Of a DNA stretch of 22,048 nucleotides, positions 2 through 17,151 are shown in pieces. The notes beneath the pieces are model-generated. The model did no database searches and was not told the origin of the DNA. It saw only the letters and a program-made list of their open reading frames with translations. The position numbers and the translations under genes are program-made. The number at the start of each line of letters is the position of its first letter. The stretch's first letter is position 1. Source of the DNA: a virus; IMG/VR virus record IMGVR_UViG_3300003322_000726, positions 1 to 22,048 of that record; one strand, written 5' to 3'.

Positions 2-340
2 ATCAGGCATTGCGCCAGATGGTCTGATTTTAAGAACTTTTTTGAAGACATGGGGTATGCTCCAACAAAAAAGCATACAATTGGCAGAAAAGACAACGAT
101 GGCAACTATTCATGCGGCCATTGTGAAGAATGTATGTCAAAAGGATGGGACAGTAATTGCGAATGGCAACCGTATGATTTACAGTCTAGAAACAGACGAA
201 ATAATCACATGGTTGCCTATAATGGTAAAACACAATGCCTATCAGACTGGATTTCTGAATTAAAATTATCGCCAACAACCGTTTTCCGTAAATTAAAACA
301 AGGAGTTAGTATAGAAAAAATATTTAATAATGGGGTATAA
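2..340 (+). CDS. HNH/AP2-like DNA-binding or homing-endonuclease-type protein, 5' end missing
   Basis: The frame is open to the left edge, so the visible 112 codons are the C-terminal part of a longer gene; the first internal ATG (base 50) lies inside a conserved block and is unlikely to be the true start. The visible order is: an RW-x-DF-x-NFFEDMG block; a basic, Gly/Asp/Asn-rich GRKDNDGNY segment; an NCEWQ segment; an RNRRNN run; then a C-terminal stretch resembling a helix-turn-helix (LSDWISELKLSPTTVFRKL). In phage HNH/AP2-like proteins the usual pattern is DMG...DR-DN-G-Y...NCRWA...QxxN, followed by a DNA-binding tail, and this fits well. An apparent 13-residue insertion with three cysteines sits between the Y and NCEW blocks. 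Such proteins often act as selfish endonucleases or DNA-binding accessory proteins; whether this one cuts DNA cannot be judged without the N-terminus. Its 3' end overlaps the next gene by 11 bases. Confidence 0.7.
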   Translation: MRHCARWSDFKNFFEDMGYAPTKKHTIGRKDNDGNYSCGHCEECMSKGWDSNCEWQPYDLQSRNRRNNHMVAYNGKTQCLSDWISELKLSPTTVFRKLKQGVSIEKIFNNGV

Positions 341-1046
341 AATAGTAACCATAGCTAGCAGAATACCAACCGAATCGTATTATACATTTACAGAGCATTT
401 TACTTCTTTAAGGGGTGAAGGATGTCTTATCTTGGGATCAAATCCGGGAGAGTACGGAGGATTGGGATCAAAACCACGGCTTTTATATAATGCGATTAAG
501 GCAGGACAAATACCAGAATCTCATATAATATTTAGCGATTGTTTTGATTTGGTTTTTTCTTGCCCACCAAAAGAAGTGTTTCTAAAATATCTTCAATTCG
601 GAACTCCGTTTGTCATATCTGCCGAAAAAAATTGCTTTCCGGATACGTTTAAAACAGAATACGATATGCTGCCCTCCTCTGGAAGTCCTTATAAGTATTT
701 AAACTCCGGAATGATTGTGGCTGAAACAGAAGCAATGTTAACTGTTCTTGAATCTATGGATGCAAAAAATATACCCAATGACTATTGGAATGGGCAACAA
801 ATGATTAATCCAAACGATCAGGAATATTACCAAAAAGAATTTTTAAAACAGCCAGTACCAATGGCGCTGGATACCATGCAAATATTATCTCAGACTTTGC
901 ACGAAGTTGAGTTAGACGAGTTTGATTTTTCTGAAGAACGAGTAAGAAACAAAACAACTAATTCCTATCCCTGCACCTTCCACTTCAACGGTGGATCAAA
1001 AACAAGCGGTGTGAGAGAACCAATACTTAAACATCTTGGGCTATGA
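330..1046 (+). CDS. PLOD-type glycosyltransferase (collagen galactosyl/glucosyltransferase-like)
   Basis: This 238-residue protein resembles the glycosyltransferase domain of procollagen lysyl hydroxylase (PLOD) proteins. Visible motifs in order are: FSDCFD at residues 68-73 (the metal/nucleotide-sugar site, where the family has a D-x-D-like FSDxYD); SAEKNCFPD at 97-105 (family: SAE-x-CWP); YLNSGM at 123-128 (family: YLNSG); NDQEYY at 162-167 (family: DDQ-x-Y); LD followed by an IL pair near 180-186; and FHFNG near the end, a likely nucleotide-diphosphate-binding His. Length suits a single catalytic domain, and no hydroxylase domain is present. Such enzymes move hexose from a UDP-sugar to an acceptor; the acceptor here is unknown. 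It overlaps the preceding gene by 11 bases and the next by 4 (ATGA), implying one transcript. The family call is from motif memory and fairly confident; the reaction is inference. Confidence 0.72.
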   Translation: MGYKIVTIASRIPTESYYTFTEHFTSLRGEGCLILGSNPGEYGGLGSKPRLLYNAIKAGQIPESHIIFSDCFDLVFSCPPKEVFLKYLQFGTPFVISAEKNCFPDTFKTEYDMLPSSGSPYKYLNSGMIVAETEAMLTVLESMDAKNIPNDYWNGQQMINPNDQEYYQKEFLKQPVPMALDTMQILSQTLHEVELDEFDFSEERVRNKTTNSYPCTFHFNGGSKTSGVREPILKHLGL

Positions 1047-1654
1047 GCGATATAAAATATGGGCTAATATCAAAAACGGACGCTCAAACTATTGAGAATA
1101 CGCTTGACTTGATATGCCAAGAGTTCCCGGATGTAGAGGAAATTTTGAAAACGTGCGAAGTGGGCCTATATTCCGGGCTAACCAGCAAAGCCATTTGTGA
1201 CTATTTGTTTTATAAAAAGCGCCGAATAAATGCTCATATCGGTATTGATAATGGGAAGGACGGTGAGTTGATGACGAATTTCCCCGATTCCGCTAGGTTT
1301 ATAAATATGTCTTCAAGCGAAGCATATAAGCATATACCAGACAACAGCCAGCATTTTATATTTATTGACGCAAACCATTCATTCCCTTACGTAGTCAGTG
1401 ATATATTTTGCTATGAAGAAAAAGTTAAGATTGGCGGGTATTTGCTATTTCATGATACCGGGGAACATATTAAGCAGTTCACCGGCTATCAATTAGGGGA
1501 TAAAAACAGCCCCGATTCCTATATTTCTGTAAGAAGAGCATTAAAACGAACCGGACTACTTGATGACGAATTATATGGGTGGAGAAAAATATTTGATGAA
1601 GCTGATATTGAAGATGAAATGGGTGGTATTTGCGTATTTAAAAAGTATAAATAA
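1043..1654 (+). CDS. Class I SAM-dependent methyltransferase (Methyltransf_24-like)
   Basis: This 203-residue protein has the pattern of small Rossmann-fold methyltransferases found in glycan or secondary-metabolite clusters. CEVGLYSGLTSKAI at residues 38-51 matches the Gly-rich SAM-binding motif I (E-x-G-x-x-x-G-x-S). HIGIDN at about 65-70 is a candidate for the acidic end of strand 2. FIFIDANHS at 105-113 and GGYLLFHDTG at 131-140 match the strand 4 and strand 5 blocks typical of Methyltransf_24 (F-IDG-H-S and GG-hhhh-HD). These His/Asp residues often bind a metal or shape the active site. It probably methylates a small molecule or sugar rather than DNA, as no (D/N)PPY motif is present. It starts in a 4-base ATGA overlap and ends directly against the next start, so it is translationally coupled in the cassette. 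The substrate is unknown. Confidence 0.72.
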   Translation: MSDIKYGLISKTDAQTIENTLDLICQEFPDVEEILKTCEVGLYSGLTSKAICDYLFYKKRRINAHIGIDNGKDGELMTNFPDSARFINMSSSEAYKHIPDNSQHFIFIDANHSFPYVVSDIFCYEEKVKIGGYLLFHDTGEHIKQFTGYQLGDKNSPDSYISVRRALKRTGLLDDELYGWRKIFDEADIEDEMGGICVFKKYK

Positions 1655-2434
1655 ATGAAACTTTCGGTAGTTATCAATTGCGACACTAGGCCCCAAAACG
1701 ATGTGGCAGAGAAAATGTTTTCAGGCACGGTTAACAGCGATTTTCTCTTAGACGGAATCATAAACAAAAAAAGATTCTTTGCCGGATTTGACATTGAACT
1801 AATCGTTTATGTAGATGAGCATTTGCCTATCCCTCCCGAAATACTTCACGGTATGAGAATGATTGCCGATACAGTAGTAGCAAGAAAGCACACTACCGAA
1901 AATTCATTTAACGACTACAATTACGTTCGGGCGCTTTCAATGGCCTCCGGCGATATTGTTGTTCATTTCGATCAGGATACAGCGGCGTTTACATCTTCAC
2001 CCGAACCAATAGAAGAATTAATTACATTATTGAACCACCATAAATTTATTTCCTACCCATCTCATTGGAGTCCAAAACCAGTTATTGATGAGTCATTCGG
2101 CCACAGAACATGGGCCTCCACAAGGTTCTTTATGTGCAAGAGAGAAACATTGCAACTTGATAACCTGAGAAAATGTATTGAAGAGCCAGAATGGGCATAC
2201 GCAACATATGGGGATTCTCCAAGAAGGTTAAATTGGACGGAGCATTTTTTGACCTTAATGAACAATGATTCCTGCTATTACCCACCAATAGATTTAGAAA
2301 GGTATGCTATCTTTAGTTGGGGTTCTTATGAATCAGGCATCCTTAATATGCTCAACCATAATATTTATTCAGATATAAAAAACTGGATTTTAAAGGTCGG
2401 TGGTATAAACTATCCGGTGGACGTTAATATTTAA
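1655..2434 (+). CDS. GT-A fold glycosyltransferase (family 2-like)
   Basis: This 259-residue protein opens with LSVVINCDTR (residues 3-12), a short hydrophobic first strand like those of GT-A enzymes. It continues with ELIVYVDE at about 48-55, then ALSMASGDIVVHFDQD, whose Asp106 and Asp108 form the D-x-D metal/nucleotide-sugar motif preceded by the usual A-x-G-(D/E) lead-in. The second half, rich in Trp and Tyr, probably forms the acceptor side. No membrane segment is visible, so the protein is likely cytoplasmic or loosely associated. Its start immediately follows the stop of the upstream methyltransferase, and its stop lies 4 bases before the next start. It would transfer a sugar to a glycan or other acceptor together with the neighbouring enzymes. 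The fold assignment is fairly firm; the exact CAZy family and the sugar are not determined. Confidence 0.7.
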   Translation: MKLSVVINCDTRPQNDVAEKMFSGTVNSDFLLDGIINKKRFFAGFDIELIVYVDEHLPIPPEILHGMRMIADTVVARKHTTENSFNDYNYVRALSMASGDIVVHFDQDTAAFTSSPEPIEELITLLNHHKFISYPSHWSPKPVIDESFGHRTWASTRFFMCKRETLQLDNLRKCIEEPEWAYATYGDSPRRLNWTEHFLTLMNNDSCYYPPIDLERYAIFSWGSYESGILNMLNHNIYSDIKNWILKVGGINYPVDVNI

Positions 2435-2438
2435 AACA

Positions 2439-3083
2439 ATGAAATTTCCTAATCAATCTTTTTGGAAAGTTTTTAAAAAAACAGAAGGTGCCTTCTCTAC
2501 TGCGGAAGCACTTGCGTTATATAATATTTGTCTTTCAGTACCAACAAATCAAGTCTGCGCTGAGTTTGGGGTGTATCTAGGAAAATCGGCTAGTGTTGCT
2601 GTCTCAGCCCTTATTGATAAAAACATTATTTTCTATTTGGTAGAGCCAGAAGCAGAAGACGAAGACTGGAAAAGAAAAATCGCCAAAACTGTCAATAAGG
2701 CAAGCAATGGAAATATCGAAATATGGGTTGCTCCAAAAACTTCTATAGAGTTCTTAAAGACAAATAAAAATGATTTTGGGTATGTATTCGTAGATTCGGG
2801 AGCGCACGATGATATGGTAATGGAAGAGGTAAAACTATTGGAGGACAGAGTAATTAAAGATGGAATTATAGCTTTTCATGATTTTTTAAATCAGTTTACC
2901 GCCGTTGAAAGAGCCTATAACTATCTTATTTCAACTGGAAAATATGTTCCGATTCCAATAAATTGGGAAGAAATATTTAATTATGTTAAAGAACATAATC
3001 TAGAAGAAGGGAACGTTTCATGGCATCAATACCCAGAATTGCCACACCCTCCGAACTTTGTAGGCGCAGTACGTAAATTATAA
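2439..3083 (+). CDS. Class I SAM-dependent methyltransferase (second copy type in cassette)
   Basis: This 214-residue Rossmann methyltransferase is distinct from the one at 1043-1654. Residues 41-51 (AEFGVYLGKSA) form the SAM motif I (E-x-G-x-x-x-G-x-S). YLVEPE at 66-71 is the acidic strand-2 end; in this family that position is normally the Asp/Glu that binds the ribose. FVDSGAHDD at 117-125 matches the FIDG-x-H block, and DGIIAFHDF at 141-149 matches the GG-hhhh-HD block. A C-terminal extension of about 65 residues, with many Trp, Pro and His, may close over the substrate. No DNA-methylase catalytic motif is visible. It sits 4 bases after the glycosyltransferase stop and 2 bases before the homing endonuclease start. 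A sugar or small-molecule O-methyltransferase is the most natural reading, which is inference. Confidence 0.7.
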   Translation: MKFPNQSFWKVFKKTEGAFSTAEALALYNICLSVPTNQVCAEFGVYLGKSASVAVSALIDKNIIFYLVEPEAEDEDWKRKIAKTVNKASNGNIEIWVAPKTSIEFLKTNKNDFGYVFVDSGAHDDMVMEEVKLLEDRVIKDGIIAFHDFLNQFTAVERAYNYLISTGKYVPIPINWEEIFNYVKEHNLEEGNVSWHQYPELPHPPNFVGAVRKL

Positions 3084-3085
3084 AA

Positions 3086-3835
3086 ATGGCATACGTATAT
3101 AGACATATAAGGTTTGACAAAAATGAGCCTTTTTATATAGGCATAGGAGAAAATAAGTATCGACATTCCGCTCTTGGTAATAGAAATCCGATTTGGAGGC
3201 GTATTGTAGCAAAAACAGAATGGGTAAGCGAAATACTATTTGATAATATAACTTGGGATTTTGCTTGCCAGAAAGAGATTGAGTTTATCAAGCTATATGG
3301 AAGAATTGATAGAAAAACGGGCACATTAGCGAATATGACTGATGGCGGAGATGGTAATTTAGGGTTAGTCCATTCTGAAGAAGCCATTAGAAAAATATCC
3401 GAATCTAGCAAAACTAGAACCGGATATTGGAAGGGCAAAAAAATGCCAAAAGAAGCAGCCATAAAAATGTCAATTTCTAAAAAGGGGAAACCCTTATTGA
3501 AGGCGATTGGAAGGAAACTTTCAGATAATCAAAAGGAATCCGTTAGAAAGCATAGTATTGGGAATAAGTATCATTTAGGACACAAACACTCTGAGGAGTC
3601 TAAGAAGAAAATCAGTGACGGGATGAAGGGTAGAAAGGCCCATAATAAAAAAGAGGTTCTTCAGTTTTCTAAATCAGGAGAACTACTATTCGAGTATTCA
3701 TCCCTCAATGAAGCGGCTGCCAAAACAGGTTATTATTCTTACGCTATTTCATGTGCATGTTCTGGGAAAAGAAATACAATAAAAAAGGCATACGAATATT
3801 ATAAAGGGTACATCTGGAAATTTAAAAGCAATTAA
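3086..3835 (+). CDS. GIY-YIG homing endonuclease with NUMOD3 and NUMOD1 DNA-binding motifs
   Basis: This 249-residue protein carries a GIY-YIG nuclease domain at about residues 1-90: VY at 4-5, FYIGIG at 16-21 (the YIG half), an Arg-rich helix (RNPIWRRI), and catalytic-type Glu64 in QKEIEFI. YGR-D---GTLANMTDGGDG at 71-90 is characteristic of phage members. NUMOD3-type repeats follow (SEEAIRKIS at 97-105, a related segment at 121-130, and HSEESKKKISDGMKGRK at 169-185). The C-terminal NUMOD1-like module (about 189-249) has an L-F-x-S-G-E-L---Y-S-S-L-NEAA pattern, then a C-SGK turn and G-Y-x-W end. Such enzymes cut a specific allele lacking the element and spread by copying. It stands free between two cassette genes with 2-base gaps on both sides, and its very basic composition contrasts with its neighbours. 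Family confidence is high; its target site is unknown. Confidence 0.9.
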   Translation: MAYVYRHIRFDKNEPFYIGIGENKYRHSALGNRNPIWRRIVAKTEWVSEILFDNITWDFACQKEIEFIKLYGRIDRKTGTLANMTDGGDGNLGLVHSEEAIRKISESSKTRTGYWKGKKMPKEAAIKMSISKKGKPLLKAIGRKLSDNQKESVRKHSIGNKYHLGHKHSEESKKKISDGMKGRKAHNKKEVLQFSKSGELLFEYSSLNEAAAKTGYYSYAISCACSGKRNTIKKAYEYYKGYIWKFKSN

Positions 3836-3837
3836 AA

Positions 3838-4659
3838 ATGGATCAACAATTTACATCGTTTAAGCATCTTGCTAATTTGGGAGATTGCATAGCTATTATG
3901 CCATCATTAAAAAGATATTACGAAATAACTGGTAAAAAAGTAAGGCTATTGCAATGCTGCAATATTTTAGCAGCGTATTACCCCGGCGCGCGGCATCCTA
4001 CTCTTGACGATGCGGGAAACGCCGTGTGTATGAATAACAAGATGTTTGAAATGGTAAGGCCATTAATTACATCTCAGGAATATATTGACGATATGGTTAA
4101 ATATGAGGGCCAAAAAGTAGACATTGATTTGGATGTTATTAGGGGGAATGTTTTTGTAGGTATGCCAAATTTAATGATTCAGTCTTGGGTGATGTATGCC
4201 TACCCTGATTTAGCCTACGACTTATCGAAGCCGTGGATAAGTCTTCCAGATATTGAAGATCATCCAATCAAACAGCAGGTAGATGGGAAAATAATTATAA
4301 ACTTTACGGAGAGATATAGAAATCAAGTAACCGATTACTTCTTTTTAAGACATCATGAAGCAAATATGATGTTTGCGGGAACAGAGAAGGAGCATTTTAT
4401 CTTTTGCAATCAATGGAATCTGAATATTCCCAGACTGGAAGTAAATGATTTTTTAGAAGCTGCCTACGCCCTAAAGTATTGCAAATTCTTTTTAGGGTGC
4501 CAGAGTTTTTTATGGAACCTTGCTCAGGCAATGCACGTCCCAAGAATAGTAGAACTATGTTCGTATGCCCCCAATGTACAACCCTTTATTGGAGAAAAAA
4601 GTTACGGCTTTTTCCACCAAAAGGGGATAGAATATTACTTCGATCTTCTTAACCAATAG
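3838..4659 (+). CDS. Glycosyltransferase-like protein related to ADP-heptose:LPS heptosyltransferases (GT9-like, GT-B)
   Basis: This 273-residue protein begins with HLANLGDCIAIMPSLKRYY (residues 10-28), matching the N-terminal G-D-x-I---P-x-L loop of heptosyltransferase-like GT-B enzymes. The C-terminal half contains AYALKYCKFFLGCQSFLWNLAQAMHVPRIVEL at 209-240, shown here only for its pattern: a lead-in helix, a conserved Gly, then Ser and a helix before the P-x-(I/V)-x-L strand, as in the nucleotide-sugar site of GT9 (family: D-x-G-x-x-H-x-A-A). The usual Asp and His are replaced, so activity is uncertain and it may be a divergent or non-catalytic member. It begins 2 bases after the homing endonuclease stop. 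It ends with TAG and overlaps the opposite-strand 92-residue gene tail to tail by 11 bases. It closes the cassette; no terminator hairpin is visible after it. Confidence 0.6.
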   Translation: MDQQFTSFKHLANLGDCIAIMPSLKRYYEITGKKVRLLQCCNILAAYYPGARHPTLDDAGNAVCMNNKMFEMVRPLITSQEYIDDMVKYEGQKVDIDLDVIRGNVFVGMPNLMIQSWVMYAYPDLAYDLSKPWISLPDIEDHPIKQQVDGKIIINFTERYRNQVTDYFFLRHHEANMMFAGTEKEHFIFCNQWNLNIPRLEVNDFLEAAYALKYCKFFLGCQSFLWNLAQAMHVPRIVELCSYAPNVQPFIGEKSYGFFHQKGIEYYFDLLNQ

Positions 4660-4927
4660 TGGATGCGAGTGTTGCCGCTGAAGTGTCAGTAGCGTACTTT
4701 TGTCCATGAACATTAAGGCCAGAAGGAAGAACTTCAACAATACCATAGCAATAGAAGTTTGCTACTTTAACCCCTTGTAAAAAAGGGTGAATGATAGTGT
4801 TGTTAGTGGGGAAGTTCATGATTGCAGAAGAACCCCAATCAATAATACGTGAACCCGGCGCGGCTGCGGTAAATGGAGGATTCCCCTCAATCATTCCGTA
4901 TACACGGGTGTTAAAATGTACTGCCAT
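4649..4927 (-). CDS. Small unrecognised protein on the opposite strand (possible minor virion protein)
   Basis: This 92-residue protein is not recognised. It is judged real because its codon use and composition look like a structured, Ala/Thr/Gly-rich protein, because it fills a region with no + strand alternative, and because it has its own upstream leader. It starts MAVHFNTRVYGM, has alternating hydrophobic/polar segments suggesting beta strands, and contains an F-x-C-YGIVEVLPSGLNVHG stretch ending in a Thr/Ala-rich helix-like tail. No transmembrane segment or signal peptide is evident. It converges with the glycosyltransferase-like gene (11-base overlap) and diverges from the lysozyme-like gene. 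A minor capsid or decoration protein or a small regulator are possible roles; neither can be demonstrated. It is the only convincing - strand gene in the window. Confidence 0.65.
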   Translation of the reverse strand: MAVHFNTRVYGMIEGNPPFTAAAPGSRIIDWGSSAIMNFPTNNTIIHPFLQGVKVANFYCYGIVEVLPSGLNVHGQKYATDTSAATLASTIG

Positions 4928-5031: not shown

Positions 5032-5997
5032 ATGAAGTTGAGGCTTCCGGGGTCGCTTTATGAAGAGCCAATGGCTCAAAAAACTATGCTAAAGGTTGCC
5101 CCGCAGTCAATCGCTCCGGCCCCAAATCCTACACCAATCACAGAAGACCCCGATCCCAAAAAACAAAAAGTAACTAAAGTCGCTGTAGCCAAAAAACCAT
5201 TTGATTGGAACGGTGAACTAAAAGCCGGATATAATAAGAAACTCAATTACGATAACCTCCCCGTTGGAGAAGTCGTAAAACAGGCGGCAAAGGAAGGGAA
5301 GATTGATCCTTCAGAACTATTGACATCGGCATGGGTGGAAGGATTGAATGAGGCCGCGATTAATCCTAACAACGTATCGGAAGCGTATAATAATGCGGCG
5401 GCTGGAATGCTGGCAGAAAATAAAAAGAGAAACATTCCCCAATCACAGCAACAGAAAATAGATACAAAGCAATTTCCTGTAGACGGGTTTTATAATTACG
5501 GACTGGATACCATAGGCCAAAACTACTCCCAACTTAAAAAGTATCTTCCGGAAGGCTTTGATAAAAGGTTACAATTCTACGATGCCTATAATGAAAGTGG
5601 AGATAAAATAAAAACAGCGGCTTTTAAATCTCATAAAGACGCTCTGATTGCAAAAGCAGCTTTCATGAATATGGAAAAAGAGAATGCTGCTAATTATGCA
5701 AAGAAAAAATATGGTGTTGATCTTGATAATAAGGCCAAAACGTATTTTACTATGGCGGCGTTTAATGGGGGGCCATTGGCTGCACAAAAAATGATTGATG
5801 AGTACGTTAAAGCAAAGGATAAAAATAAATTCATTGATGAAGGGCAAACAACATACTTGGATGGAAGGGTGCATAAGAATATATCTCCCCGAATGAAGAT
5901 GCTTGCCACGGCTCAACAACTACTAAATGCCCCATCGCCATCTCCCGCGCCAATGCCAAATAGTTTTCCAATAAATTCATTACTTAATGTCCAATAA
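5032..5997 (+). CDS. Lytic-transglycosylase-like virion protein (SLT-type fold, divergent)
   Basis: This 321-residue protein has a Pro/Ala-rich N-terminal part (about residues 22-42), a central helical domain (about 55-295) and a Pro/Ser-rich tail (300-312). Two blocks recall soluble lytic transglycosylases. SELLTSAWVEGLNEA at about 94-108 places Glu103 where the catalytic Glu of the S--L--A--ES-x-N motif sits. MAAFNGGPLA at 241-250 resembles the A-A-Y-N-A/G-G-P motif that packs against the sugar. The Ser after the usual catalytic Glu is Gly here, and the spacing between blocks is larger than in standard domains, so this is a divergent or expanded member. There is no signal peptide. Its position just before the packaging genes suits a virion-borne peptidoglycan-cleaving protein used at entry, rather than a late endolysin. 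A purely structural internal protein is the alternative. Confidence 0.55.
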   Translation: MKLRLPGSLYEEPMAQKTMLKVAPQSIAPAPNPTPITEDPDPKKQKVTKVAVAKKPFDWNGELKAGYNKKLNYDNLPVGEVVKQAAKEGKIDPSELLTSAWVEGLNEAAINPNNVSEAYNNAAAGMLAENKKRNIPQSQQQKIDTKQFPVDGFYNYGLDTIGQNYSQLKKYLPEGFDKRLQFYDAYNESGDKIKTAAFKSHKDALIAKAAFMNMEKENAANYAKKKYGVDLDNKAKTYFTMAAFNGGPLAAQKMIDEYVKAKDKNKFIDEGQTTYLDGRVHKNISPRMKMLATAQQLLNAPSPSPAPMPNSFPINSLLNVQ

Positions 5998-6682
5998 TTT
6001 AAAGTACGTAAAAGACAGAATAATTTGTCGTGTTGATACTGAACAAAAGAATCACCACACATTTGAAAACGGCCAAACCATAAGAGTAGAAAGGGGGTTC
6101 GATAATTTTGATCGAAAACACACAGAACAGGTGTTAGGCGAAGTTGTTTCTTCTGAAAGCATTCCATTAGGCGCAATGGTATTATTTAATCACAACAGTC
6201 TCCACCAAGTAAATGAAATATTCAATCACTCAAACATTAGCGGAGCCGATATTGCAAGCGGCATAAAGATGTTTTCAATACCAGAAACAGAGTGCTACTT
6301 ATGGAAGATGGAAGGAGAAGATGAGTGGCATCCAACCAAAGGATTTGTTATTGCAGATAGAGTATTTCAGCCTTACAATGGAATCATAGAAGGCATACCA
6401 CCAACCAGAGTAAAGAATGTTCTGTACATAAAAACAGGAGAGTTTGCTGGCAAAGTAGCCCATGTATTAAAAGCAAGTGATTACGAAATAGTATTCCGTA
6501 ATGAAAAAGGAGTAGAAGAAAGAATAATCAGGTGCAGACATTTTGAAGATCAGTGTCACGAAAGGGAAGAAATTGTAGCCATCAATCATGAACTCACAGA
6601 CAAAGTTGAGTCCGGCGAATTACTTGTAGGGCTTACTCCATCTTCCGCAAAATCAATTCAAATAACAGCGTATGCCGACTGA
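5987..6682 (+). CDS. Conserved-looking protein upstream of terminase, possibly GroES-like fold
   Basis: This 231-residue protein is not firmly recognised. Its first half has features of a co-chaperonin: YVKDRIICRVD at 7-17 (compare the K-D-R-V-L-V-K opening of GroES), a polar Asn/Gly-rich loop at about 20-40 where the mobile loop would be, and GEVVSSESIPLGAMVLFNH at 51-69 (compare the G-x-V--G--(x)--GD-V-(L/F) strand pair). The second half has IPPTRVKNVLYIKTGEFAGKV and CRHFEDQ-x-HEREEIVAINHEL, a separate beta-rich part ending in a G-E-L-L-V-G-L strand. A sugar-binding or virion beta protein is an alternative. It overlaps its upstream neighbour by 11 bases and its downstream neighbour by 11, so it is expressed with the packaging genes. 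The GroES suggestion is inference from pattern only. Confidence 0.4.
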   Translation: MSNNLKYVKDRIICRVDTEQKNHHTFENGQTIRVERGFDNFDRKHTEQVLGEVVSSESIPLGAMVLFNHNSLHQVNEIFNHSNISGADIASGIKMFSIPETECYLWKMEGEDEWHPTKGFVIADRVFQPYNGIIEGIPPTRVKNVLYIKTGEFAGKVAHVLKASDYEIVFRNEKGVEERIIRCRHFEDQCHEREEIVAINHELTDKVESGELLVGLTPSSAKSIQITAYAD

Positions 6683-7004
6683 TGCAGAAAGGATAAAAGA
6701 GCTTGAAAAGGAATTGGAATTATACCGCCCTAACGGATCGGTAGCATTCTACTACGAACTCAATAGATTCCTCAATGCTACAGTATCTATGATGCGAAAG
6801 CAAAGCCTTGAAACATTAATGAGTGGAGGCAAGTCTGACGATGACCCTAAGAAGTTTGAAAAGATGATGACGCTAATAAAAAATGCAAAGGAACACGTTA
6901 TTGATATGGCTGATATAAAATCAAAACTAAAATTAAGCGGGAACGAAGAAAAGGATAAGGAAGATATTCCATTTGCCGAATCAATAGCAGAGGTTAGAAA
7001 GTAA
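6672..7004 (+). CDS. Small protein immediately upstream of terminase large subunit (TerS position)
   Basis: This 110-residue, highly charged, mostly helical protein starts with a heptad-like segment (RIKELEKELELYRPNG) suggesting a short coiled coil. A helical middle follows (VAFYYELNRFLNATVSMMRKQSLETLM), then an acidic/basic tail rich in Lys, Glu and Asp. Its size, helicity and position directly before the large terminase fit a small terminase subunit, which recognises viral DNA and forms a ring on it. However, no helix-turn-helix is clear, so the call rests on position. The stop TAA shares its last base with the ATG of the terminase gene (TAATG), indicating coupled translation. An unrelated assembly factor cannot be excluded. 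Confidence 0.4.
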   Translation: MPTDAERIKELEKELELYRPNGSVAFYYELNRFLNATVSMMRKQSLETLMSGGKSDDDPKKFEKMMTLIKNAKEHVIDMADIKSKLKLSGNEEKDKEDIPFAESIAEVRK

Positions 7005-9076
7005 TGTTATCCGTTGATATATATGGCAGTTTAGTTTATTGGCCCGATGCTCCCGAACATCATAAAATTGATGGGTGGGATTTGCCAAAGGAAAAACAAA
7101 TGTGGGTCAGGAAAGAACTTCCTGACTTTTTTGATCATGTTGAGATTGACAAGGAAGGGGTGGCATCGTTAACATATCAGCAAAAAGAATACGCCTCTAA
7201 AGAAGTAGAAAGATGTAAGAAGGGGTACTGGTTTTATAACAACGGTGTTCCAACATATATAACAGGTAAAAATTATTTCTATTTACAATGGTGGAAGCTA
7301 GAAGATGATATATATCCGGATTATAGGGATGCGGATAGGAGGTACTTTCTATTTCTAAATCATTGGGAAAACGTATTATGGTGCATAGGAGTAGGAAGGG
7401 GTAAAAAGCGTAGAGAAGGGGCCAGTTCTCAGGCAACCGCGAACTTAATATACGAATGTATTTTCTTTACAAATAGCAATTGCGGTCTTGTCAGTAAAAC
7501 TCAAATAGATAGCAGGGATACTTTCACCGATATGGCGGCGTTTGGCTATCATCAATTGCCCGTTTTTCTAAAACCAAGACAATTAAACAGAGCCGATTCG
7601 GTTACTGAATTGGTGTTTGCTGTTAAAAATGAAAAAGGCGTTTCAGGAACCAAAGGCACAAGATCAAAGATAAATTATAGAGCGCCGGTTGAAAATGCGT
7701 ATGACCGTGGTAGAATGTCTCGTATCTTGGGAGATGAAGGAGGAAAGTGGCCTGCCGACGTTAAATTTTCCAAATTCATATCTAAGGTTACAAAAACAAT
7801 GGTTAAGGGAGCAAAACGAGTTGGTTTTGCTGAATGCCCTTCCACTGTTAATGAATTAACTAAAGGTGGTGGCGCTGAGTTTAAAAAATTCTGGGATGGG
7901 GCCAATCAATTTAAAACAGGTGGCAAAAAGACTTCAAACAGGTTTGTAACATATTTCACGCCTGCATATGATAACTATGAGGGCTTCATAGATCAATACG
8001 GGATGAGTGTTATCGATGCTCCCACCGAAGAACAATACAAATATTTAGTAGAAAAATGGGTAGTTAAAGACCCAATAACAGGAGAAACAGTTAGTGAAAT
8101 TTCTGAAGAAGATATTCGGTTAGGAGCTAGGGCTTATGTATTGAGCAGAAGAAATGGCCTTTCGGGAGACTTGCTGGAAGAAGAAATAAGGCAGAACCCT
8201 TGCACAGTTCAGGAAATGTTTGAGGCTGCCAATACAGACTGCGTTTTCAACTCCATAAACATCAACAGAAGAAAGAAAGAACTAGAAGAGAATCCTCCAT
8301 TTAAGAGAAACATAATTTACTATAGGAATGAAGTAACAAATAAGGTTGATTGGAGAGATATTGACCCAAAGACAGAAAGTTTTTATTGGAGAGTTACAAA
8401 TACTGGGAAGCCAGAAGATAGTAATAAGTTTTATTTTGACGGCAAAGTTAGAATGCCGGGAAGAACAAAGGTTGGTGGCATTACAGTAGATAGCTATAGT
8501 AACTCACAAGGCGGCAGAAAGTATGGCTCTAAGGCATCTGCATGGATAGGACTAAAATATGATATGCTTGACCCTATGAATACAGGGAAAGCTATCGGGC
8601 ATTTATATGGAAGGCCAAAGGAGAAGGACGATCTTCACCGTCAGGTTATGCTTGCCGCAGAATATTGGGGATTTCAATGTTGGTACGAACACAATAGCGA
8701 CGATTACGACGGTTTTTTCAGAGACAGGGGAAGAACCGGATATTTGGGGCGGTATCCATTAAGTACAATTGATCCAATAAAACTGAAAAAAGAAAATGTC
8801 GAAAGGCATAGAGGGTTTCCAACGACTCCATTTTCTCTAACTAAACAACTGGATGCTGGTATATCCTATTTTGAACACTTCTGCGAATTAATAGACTTTG
8901 AAGAACTATTGGAAAACGCGCTTATATTTGACGCTTATGATCGGACAAAGTACGATTGTGTAGTAGCATTCATGATGCTGATTGTTGTATTGACAGAGCC
9001 GGTAGTAACGCCACCGCCAAAGAAGCATCCTATCATAGAAGTATATCCTGCAAATCAAACAGCCAACCTTAACTAA
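7004..9076 (+). CDS. terL: Terminase large subunit (DNA-packaging ATPase and nuclease)
   Basis: This 690-residue protein is the packaging motor: the N-terminal ATPase drives DNA into the prohead and the C-terminal RNase H-like nuclease cuts the concatemer. Before the ATPase core there is GYWFYNNGVPTYITG and a YFYLQWW segment, a lead-in typical of terminases from Bacteroidota phages. The Walker A-like loop is GVGRGKKRREG at residues 129-139, a deviant form rich in Lys/Arg. Walker B is ILGDEGG with Asp244 and Glu245. The nuclease half has VDSYS with Asp496 as the likely first metal-binding acid, and FDAYDRTKYD with Asp643, Asp646 and Asp652 near the end as candidates for the others. Length and order agree with the terminases of crAss-like and related phages. 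No intein or frameshift is seen. It is coupled to the preceding small gene. Confidence 0.88.
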   Translation: MLSVDIYGSLVYWPDAPEHHKIDGWDLPKEKQMWVRKELPDFFDHVEIDKEGVASLTYQQKEYASKEVERCKKGYWFYNNGVPTYITGKNYFYLQWWKLEDDIYPDYRDADRRYFLFLNHWENVLWCIGVGRGKKRREGASSQATANLIYECIFFTNSNCGLVSKTQIDSRDTFTDMAAFGYHQLPVFLKPRQLNRADSVTELVFAVKNEKGVSGTKGTRSKINYRAPVENAYDRGRMSRILGDEGGKWPADVKFSKFISKVTKTMVKGAKRVGFAECPSTVNELTKGGGAEFKKFWDGANQFKTGGKKTSNRFVTYFTPAYDNYEGFIDQYGMSVIDAPTEEQYKYLVEKWVVKDPITGETVSEISEEDIRLGARAYVLSRRNGLSGDLLEEEIRQNPCTVQEMFEAANTDCVFNSININRRKKELEENPPFKRNIIYYRNEVTNKVDWRDIDPKTESFYWRVTNTGKPEDSNKFYFDGKVRMPGRTKVGGITVDSYSNSQGGRKYGSKASAWIGLKYDMLDPMNTGKAIGHLYGRPKEKDDLHRQVMLAAEYWGFQCWYEHNSDDYDGFFRDRGRTGYLGRYPLSTIDPIKLKKENVERHRGFPTTPFSLTKQLDAGISYFEHFCELIDFEELLENALIFDAYDRTKYDCVVAFMMLIVVLTEPVVTPPPKKHPIIEVYPANQTANLN

Positions 9077-16256: not shown

Positions 16257-16891
16257 TGCGGCGCATTGAATTTATAGAACGATGTCTGAGGCAGATTTAT
16301 GGTGACAATCCTAATGATGACTCATCCATTACCTATAACCTTGTAAATAGCTGGTTACAGGATGCTACTGCCGTTGCTGCAAAACAAAACAACAAAGAAA
16401 ATATTGCATTAGAAGGGATTTCATTTACAAATAACAGTTTTTACACCACCTTTAAAGGTCTTACAATTACCTACAATGACCGTTTCTTATATCGTGTGAC
16501 ACTCCCGCAAATCCCCTTAGGGATTGGCACCTCAGATGGCGTTTCCACTGCGGTATTGAAGGATACTGATGGCGCTATTACCTATCCGATAGTACTGATT
16601 AGCCAAAACCAGCGTACTTATTCTCCCGGAATGCGTCCAATCCCCAATAAATTAATTGGGTATATAGAAGGGGAATACATGTATCTAATAAGCACGTATA
16701 TCATAACAGATATGACGGCATCGGTAACAATGATTTCGGCAGGTGATTCAACCGATTTGAATAGCACTTTGAACGTGCCAAGTGATTATTTTCCAATAAT
16801 TGTTGATTACATAAAACAGCAGTTATTGTTTGAAAAGACTCAGCCCGTAGACACAACCAATAATGGCAAAGACGTAAATCCAGAAGCATGA
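16256..16891 (+). CDS. Second head-tail connector/ring candidate (P22 gp4-like position)
   Basis: This 211-residue protein starts MRRIEFIERCLRQIYG, a helical opening common in connector proteins, followed by a mid-section with Thr/Ile-rich beta segments (GLTITYNDRFLYRVTLPQIP). The C-terminal PSDYFPIIVDYIKQQLLFEK segment followed by P-V-D-T-T-N-N-G-K-D resembles the C-terminal helix and acidic tail of P22 gp4-type connector proteins. It lies between the TTG-start connector and the GroES gene with overlaps on both sides (1 base upstream, 4 bases downstream). It would stack below the portal and hold the tail. The assignment rests on position and the C-terminal helix, so a related ring protein is possible. 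Confidence 0.55.
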   Translation: MRRIEFIERCLRQIYGDNPNDDSSITYNLVNSWLQDATAVAAKQNNKENIALEGISFTNNSFYTTFKGLTITYNDRFLYRVTLPQIPLGIGTSDGVSTAVLKDTDGAITYPIVLISQNQRTYSPGMRPIPNKLIGYIEGEYMYLISTYIITDMTASVTMISAGDSTDLNSTLNVPSDYFPIIVDYIKQQLLFEKTQPVDTTNNGKDVNPEA

Positions 16892-17151
16892 AAGCAATAA
16901 GAGATAATGTATTGGTAAAACCTTTTGAATCTGACAGCGTAACAGCGGGCGGTTTATATGTCCCAGATTCATGCAAAGAGATCAGCAATAAGTGTACTAT
17001 AGTATCCGTAGGAGAGGGAACACCAAAAAAGCCAATGAGATTAAAAGAGGGGCAGATTGGCTATAGGGTACGTGATTGGGGGTGCGAAGTACTGATTGAT
17101 GGGGAACTTCATTACTTAATGAACCAAGACGCAATTATAGCATGGGAATAA
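16888..17151 (+). CDS. groES: GroES-type co-chaperonin (Cpn10)
   Basis: This 87-residue protein matches GroES along its length. MKAIRDNVLVKPFE (1-14) is the N-terminal beta strand. Residues 16-33 (TAGGLYVPDSCKEI core) are the mobile loop that contacts the chaperonin ring, with LYV in place of the IVL tripeptide. IVSVGEG (38-44) is the V-x-V-G block. GQIGYRVRDWGCEVLIDGELHYLMNQDAIIAWE gives, in pattern only, the G-(D/Q)--Y-x-V---G-E-V--DG-E---L---I-A- ending, at 55-87. The length is close to bacterial GroES (about 97), with a shortened roof loop. It caps a GroEL-like ring during protein folding, probably the host's chaperonin, as T4 gp31 and other phage co-chaperonins do, to fold capsid or tail proteins. 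It lies between connector genes with 4- and 10-base overlaps. Confidence 0.93.
   Translation: MKAIRDNVLVKPFESDSVTAGGLYVPDSCKEISNKCTIVSVGEGTPKKPMRLKEGQIGYRVRDWGCEVLIDGELHYLMNQDAIIAWE

What the first reader, a model, noticed from the sequence alone, without database searches (positions are those of the whole stretch)
330..4659. Phage-borne glycosyltransferase/methyltransferase cassette
Three different glycosyltransferase types (PLOD-like, GT-A/family-2-like, GT9-like) and two class I methyltransferases lie in one tight run with 4-base or smaller gaps, apart from the intruding endonuclease. A set this complete looks like a pathway that builds or decorates one glycan, for example on virion proteins, DNA bases or the host surface polysaccharide. 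I know of no described system with exactly this content, but cannot search. Sequence shows the order and motifs; the pathway idea is inference.
Basis: partly seen in the sequence, partly recalled or inferred. Interest (0 to 1): 0.75.

Follow-up and report, generated by a model that had tools for sequence, protein, structure and literature searches.

The report
Phage glycosylation cassette beside putative decoration-protein gene
Viruses that infect Bacteroidota-type bacteria carry a swappable set of sugar-attaching and sugar-methylating enzymes next to a small gene on the opposite strand, most likely so that the virus can coat one of its own particle proteins with sugars.

Summary
Window 330-4659 carries, in one tight + strand run, a PLOD-type glycosyltransferase (GT), a class I methyltransferase (MT), a probable GT-A enzyme with an invariant DxD, a second MT, an inserted homing endonuclease and a GT-B protein with the heptosyltransferase (GT9) fold. 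It is not a chance pile-up: the same order, without the endonuclease, lies beside the terminase in three more phages, and all but the cut-off 5' end in a fourth. In the wider lineage other GT/MT/sugar-nucleotide sets fill the same slot, and the terminase tree requires several cassette gains or losses. In 24 of 28 distinct GT9-bearing contigs a homologue lies beside GT9 on the opposite strand; in three related phages a DEC-like gene directly follows the putative capsid gene. Best reading: a virion-protein glycosylation locus making a methyl-capped glycan, with this small protein the leading but untested acceptor. No thymidylate-synthase/hydroxymethylase gene, no polyprenol-phosphate sugar transferase (both 0 of 38 records) and no membrane segments argue against DNA-base or host-polysaccharide roles. 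Phage virion glycosylation with GTs plus O-methyltransferase is already known: a new variant of a known kind.

The parts
330..1046 (+). PLOD-type glycosyltransferase (GT domain only, 238 aa)
   Evidence: PF25342 E 3.5e-19; profile hits the LH3 GT domain 6wfv 3e-15 and mimivirus R699 2e-13; D70xxD73 and H218 align with LH3 VDSYD and the H of VHGNG
1043..1654 (+). MT1, class I SAM methyltransferase (Methyltransf_24), 203 aa
   Evidence: PF13578 E 7.3e-12; homologous to MT2 by profile comparison, E 3e-7
1655..2434 (+). Probable GT-A (family-2-like) glycosyltransferase, 259 aa
   Evidence: PF00535 0.027 here, up to 2e-4 in relatives, below the curated cut-off; D106xD108 invariant in six members
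2439..3083 (+). MT2, class I SAM methyltransferase (O-methyltransferase-like), 214 aa
   Evidence: PF13578 E 8.4e-10; caffeoyl-CoA O-methyltransferase 8gxo 4e-7
3086..3835 (+). Inserted homing endonuclease (NUMOD3; GIY-YIG-like N-terminus by eye); not part of the pathway
   Evidence: NUMOD3 2.9e-7, phrog_314 homing endonuclease 1e-17, TIGR01453 7e-10 but below cut-off; the slot holds small ORFs in L002, L008, L026, L028
3838..4659 (+). GT9-like GT-B glycosyltransferase, 273 aa
   Evidence: AF2 pLDDT 87.5; VIA Z 16.7 to WaaF, 16.2 to WaaC, 14.5 to the protein heptosyltransferase TibC; found in 28 distinct phage contigs
4649..4927 (-). DEC: 92-aa opposite-strand protein, putative virion decoration protein and candidate glycan acceptor
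   Evidence: Homologues on the strand opposite GT9 in 24 of 28 GT9-bearing contigs; dN/dS 0.05-0.27; DEC-like genes directly after the putative MCP in L016, L018, L022; beta-rich model, pLDDT 82, no confident fold match
7004..9076 (+). Terminase large subunit: start of the packaging/head module that the cassette adjoins
   Evidence: phrog_6681 5e-76; same neighbourhood in relatives

Best explanation
The run is one functional locus that glycosylates a protein of the phage particle. A first GT (PLOD-type or GT-A) places a sugar on an acceptor protein in the host cytoplasm, the other GTs extend it (the GT9-like enzyme probably adds a heptose or similar sugar), and the two methyltransferases cap sugar hydroxyls. 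The likeliest acceptor is the small protein made from the opposite strand at 4649-4927, read here as a head decoration protein. The locus is exchanged between phages as a cassette, so related phages would display different glycans. Shown: gene identities (GT-A tentative), conserved order, GT9-DEC pairing, coding status of DEC, cassette exchange relative to the terminase. Inferred: that the enzymes act in one pathway, that the target is a virion protein, that it is DEC, and the identity and order of the sugars.
For: Order conserved in four other phages. GT9-like gene with DEC on the opposite strand in 24 of 28 distinct contigs, 23 within 123 bp, in both convergent and divergent arrangements; DEC under purifying selection. 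DEC-like genes sit directly after the putative MCP in three related phages. Related islands carry sugar-nucleotide genes: PfkB kinase + cytidylyltransferase + cupin in L009, DegT aminotransferase + formyltransferase in L026, and DUF5672-GT9 fusions with MTs. No transmembrane segment in any cassette protein. No PF00303 and no PF02397 in 38 related records. In L087 the MT2+GT2 pair with other GTs lies just behind the capsid and head-tail genes of an unrelated phage. Precedents: mycobacteriophage GTs plus O-methyltransferase modify capsid and tail tube proteins (PMC11600133); PBCV-1 A064R/A061L, two GT and two MT activities, build the capsid N-glycan end (PMC9614988).
Against: No glycan, acceptor or activity has been observed. 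DEC-type genes also occur where no GT was seen (L012 by eye; L015), so DEC is a core gene and the pairing could reflect an insertion hot spot. The decoration role of DEC rests on gene position. The GT-A call is below the Pfam cut-off. Most related records are incomplete, so absences are soft.
Confidence: 0.62

Rival explanations
1. The cassette remodels the host's surface polysaccharide (LPS or capsule) during infection, for example to block adsorption of competing phages.
For: GT9 enzymes typically build LPS core; GT/MT sets are common in polysaccharide loci (general knowledge). GT9-like fold.
Against: No polyprenol-phosphate sugar transferase in 38 records; no membrane segments in the cassette proteins; the locus lies with packaging/head genes and is paired with DEC.
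Confidence: 0.16
2. A hot spot next to the terminase collects unrelated cargo genes (morons); the enzymes do not act in one pathway.
For: The slot also holds homing endonucleases and varying small ORFs, and island content varies between relatives.
Against: The varying content is mostly of one theme (GTs, MTs, sugar-nucleotide genes); five genes keep their order across phages whose terminases are only 46-70% identical to the window's; the MT2+GT2 pair travels together into an unrelated phage.
Confidence: 0.12
3. The enzymes glycosylate modified DNA bases to resist restriction.
For: Phage GTs that modify hydroxymethylated bases are well known (general knowledge), and the two MTs could in principle act on DNA.
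Against: No thymidylate synthase/dNMP hydroxymethylase family gene in 38 related records, several of them 60-85 kb; the MTs match Methyltransf_24, not DNA MTs, in Pfam (weak PHROG hits to a 'DNA methyltransferase' family exist); the PLOD-type GT matches protein (hydroxylysine) glycosyltransferases.
Confidence: 0.06

Closest known systems
Mycobacteriophage virion glycosylation (cluster O phages such as Corndog; Freeman et al. 2023, as reported in PMC11600133 and PMC12363180)
   Same: Several phage-encoded GTs with an O-methyltransferase in one run; capsid and tail tube proteins are the reported targets.
   Different: Different host phylum and phage type; here a PLOD-type GT, a GT9-fold enzyme and two MTs, beside the terminase and paired with an opposite-strand small gene. 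Sequences were not compared directly.
Chlorovirus PBCV-1 A064R and A061L (PMC9614988)
   Same: Virus-encoded set of two GT and two MT activities that finishes a methylated glycan on the capsid.
   Different: Eukaryotic algal virus; the GT families described there are not those found here.
Mimivirus L230/R699 and animal PLOD3 (LH3) GT domain
   Same: The PLOD-type GT belongs to the same domain family, including residues that align with the DxxD and H of LH3.
   Different: No lysyl hydroxylase domain in the protein; acceptor unknown.
E. coli WaaF/WaaC and the protein heptosyltransferase TibC (GT9)
   Same: GT-B fold over most of the chain, Z 14.5-16.7.
   Different: 10-13% sequence identity; no Pfam GT9 match for the window protein; donor and acceptor unknown.

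Membership tests
GT_PLOD domain (PF25342) | Pfam profile over the gathering score | tested here: met
   69.4 bits against a cut-off of 27
GT_PLOD domain (PF25342) | DxxD motif and C-terminal His of the LH3 GT domain | tested here: met
   D70, D73 and H218 are invariant in A3 and align with VDSYD and VHGNG of LH3; their role as metal ligands is from memory
PLOD enzymes (lysyl hydroxylase + GT) | 2OG-Fe(II) lysyl hydroxylase domain in the same protein | tested here: not met
   The 238-aa protein holds the GT domain only; so it is a PLOD-type GT, not a PLOD
Glycosyltransferase family 9 (PF01075) | Pfam profile over the gathering score | tested here: not met
   No match for the window protein; best of nine members E 0.11
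Glycosyltransferase family 9 (PF01075) | GT-B fold of WaaF/WaaC | tested here: met
   Z 16.7, rmsd 3.3, 236 residues aligned to 1psw; hence 'GT9-like', not filed as GT9
Glycosyltransferase family 2 (PF00535) | Pfam profile over the gathering score | tested here: not met
   14.8 bits against 23.3
Glycosyltransferase family 2 (PF00535) | DxD metal motif of GT-A enzymes | tested here: met
   D106xD108 invariant in six members
Methyltransf_24 (PF13578) | Pfam profile over the gathering score (MT1, MT2) | tested here: met
   46.5 and 39.9 bits against 26.3
Phage virion glycosylation system | Phage-encoded GTs with O-methyltransferase-like genes in one locus | tested here: met
Phage virion glycosylation system | Glycan present on virion proteins and lost when the GTs are removed | not testable with these tools
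   Needs virion mass spectrometry and mutants
Phage DNA hypermodification | dNMP hydroxymethylase / thymidylate synthase homologue | tested here: inconclusive
   PF00303 in 0 of 38 related records, with the control positive in 9 of 14 genomes; the window's own phage is only a 22-kb fragment and most records are incomplete

The most novel reading that the evidence does not exclude
Phage 'glycotypes': at a fixed place beside the terminase, an exchangeable glycan-synthesis cassette is coupled to a dedicated acceptor, a small decoration protein encoded on the opposite strand, so that closely related phages display different sugar coats, comparable to serotype switching of bacterial polysaccharide loci.
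Probability: 0.35. Interest if true: 0.78.

Novelty: new variant of a known kind. Interest (0 to 1): 0.55.

Why it matters
Virion glycosylation in phages has been shown mainly in mycobacteriophages. This locus suggests that a lineage of environmental phages linked to Bacteroidota encodes interchangeable glycan-building sets, some with their own sugar-nucleotide genes, and it points to a specific small protein as the acceptor to test. It also gives annotation anchors: a GT9-like family with no Pfam, PHROG or NCBIfam match for the window protein, and a decoration-like family, both so far seen only in phage contigs in the collections searched.

Tried and rejected
Chance adjacency: rejected by conserved order in four other phages. 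Bacterial origin: no relative of the GT-A family in bacterial genomes; the GT9-like family in genome bins turned up only in two phage contigs binned with Bacteroidota MAGs. Known phage isolates: no tblastn match for GT2, MT2, GT9 or DEC; PLOD only at 25-29% in marine phages, mostly cyanophages. MT1 was not searched against phage isolates. DNA hypermodification: no PF00303. Polysaccharide initiation: no PF02397. Sequence search of GT9 and GT2 against PDB: nothing useful. Fold search of DEC: no match above noise, so its decoration role rests on gene position only. Comparing the GT-A profile with a clear GT2 profile gave no significant match. No glycosyltransferase is annotated near the terminase of an elemo phage. 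Papers on glycosylation in this phage group: none found; Freeman et al. 2023 itself is not held. The pattern-based contig scans miss distant relatives, so counts of co-occurrence are lower bounds.

Full report
What is there. The window is a whole 22,048-base IMG/VR record, the packaging/head end of a tailed phage. Its terminase (7004-9076) is 27% identical to that of Flavobacterium elemo phages, with Cellulophaga phages also among the hits; portal, a putative capsid protein and further virion proteins follow. The finding lies directly upstream. Genes at 330-1046, 1043-1654, 1655-2434, 2439-3083, 3086-3835 and 3838-4659 run on the + strand with gaps of -4, 0, 4, 2 and 2 bases.

Identities. The first enzyme is a PLOD-type GT domain (PF25342 3.5e-19; LH3 3e-15), with DxxD and H aligned to LH3. 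MT1 and MT2 are Methyltransf_24 proteins, related to each other (profile E 3e-7). The third enzyme is a probable GT-A protein: PF00535 below cut-off, best 2e-4 among relatives, DxD invariant in six members. A comparison with a clear GT2 profile was not significant, so this assignment is the least secure. The last enzyme has no profile match but folds like WaaF (Z 16.7, 236 residues; pLDDT 87.5). The gene at 3086-3835 is a NUMOD3-bearing homing endonuclease.

Not chance. The order PLOD-MT1-GT2-MT2-GT9, followed by a minus-strand ORF, a GroES-like gene, a 110-aa gene and the terminase, is repeated in L002, L008 and L026, with one extra gene between PLOD and MT1 in L002 and L026. L028 begins inside MT1 and shows the rest. 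None has the homing endonuclease; small ORFs sit in that slot. L087, an unrelated phage, carries the MT2+GT2 pair (there MT2 precedes GT2) with other GTs just behind its capsid and head-tail genes.

The overlooked gene. The minus-strand ORF at 4649-4927 overlaps the end of GT9 by 11 bases. Homologues were found in 26 of 38 related records. A search seeded only with GT9 gave new loci; counting those, the window and two phage contigs from genome bins, 24 of 28 distinct contigs have DEC on the strand opposite GT9, 23 of them within 123 bases (near-identical contigs counted once). One of the four exceptions (L047) is cut at the contig end and another (L053) has a DEC-like ORF by eye. Both convergent and divergent arrangements occur, so adjacency survives rearrangement. 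Pairwise dN/dS is 0.05-0.27 where dS is measurable. In L016, L018 and L022 a DEC-like gene follows the putative capsid gene on the + strand; with a profile built without them, L018 scores 1.6e-7 and L022 1.2e-3, while L016 does not reach E 1. The AF2 model is beta-rich with no confident fold match. 'Decoration protein' is therefore a positional inference.

Cassette exchange. Other relatives fill the same slot with other glycan genes: DUF5672-GT9 fusions with MTs and GT2s, a PfkB kinase, cupin and cytidylyltransferase in L009, and a DegT aminotransferase with a formyltransferase in L026. In the terminase tree the window's closest kin, L003 and L004, carry the DUF5672 type, and the window's type needs four gains or losses on well-supported branches. 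L092 in that tree is a fragment of the same contig as L002. Phage genomes are mosaic, so the terminase tree stands for the terminase only.

Mechanism. No cassette protein has a membrane segment, which fits cytoplasmic modification of a protein. There is no thymidylate synthase-type hydroxymethylase (0 of 38) and no polyprenol-phosphate sugar transferase (0 of 38). Precedents are mycobacteriophages, whose GTs and O-methyltransferase modify capsid and tail tube proteins (PMC11600133), and PBCV-1, where two GT and two MT activities finish a capsid glycan (PMC9614988). I conclude that a virion-protein glycosylation locus is most likely (0.62), with about 0.35 for DEC specifically as the acceptor.

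Limits. The contig scans need exact short patterns and miss distant relatives; records are fragments; no chemistry has been seen; AF2 jobs did not reach the GT-A protein. The full text of Freeman et al. 2023 was not available, and its content is cited through PMC11600133 and PMC12363180. Host assignment to Bacteroidota rests on terminase similarity and on two phage contigs in Bacteroidota genome bins, not on an isolate.

Noticed in passing
window 5987-6682 and 16888-17151: Two GroES-like genes (phrog_13932 at 6.7e-5 for the first; the second judged by eye); GroEL-like genes (by eye) lie near DEC in L014, L015 and L097.
   Followed up: no
window 5032-5997: Protein with a lytic-transglycosylase-like NGGP motif by eye; homologues in L013 and L025 at 33%.
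   Followed up: no
L071 and L078, 7983-9712: In a different phage lineage a GT9-like gene and a second gene, GT-like by eye, lie directly upstream of the likely terminase.
   Followed up: partly
L018 17218-18210: DEC-like protein in what look like tandem repeats right after the putative capsid gene.
   Followed up: no
L009 3190-4686: PfkB kinase, cupin and cytidylyltransferase beside GT9, reminiscent of ADP-heptose synthesis.
   Followed up: partly
window 2-340 and L002 1-580: HNH endonuclease (window) or HNH-like gene by eye (L002) upstream of the glycan genes.
   Followed up: no
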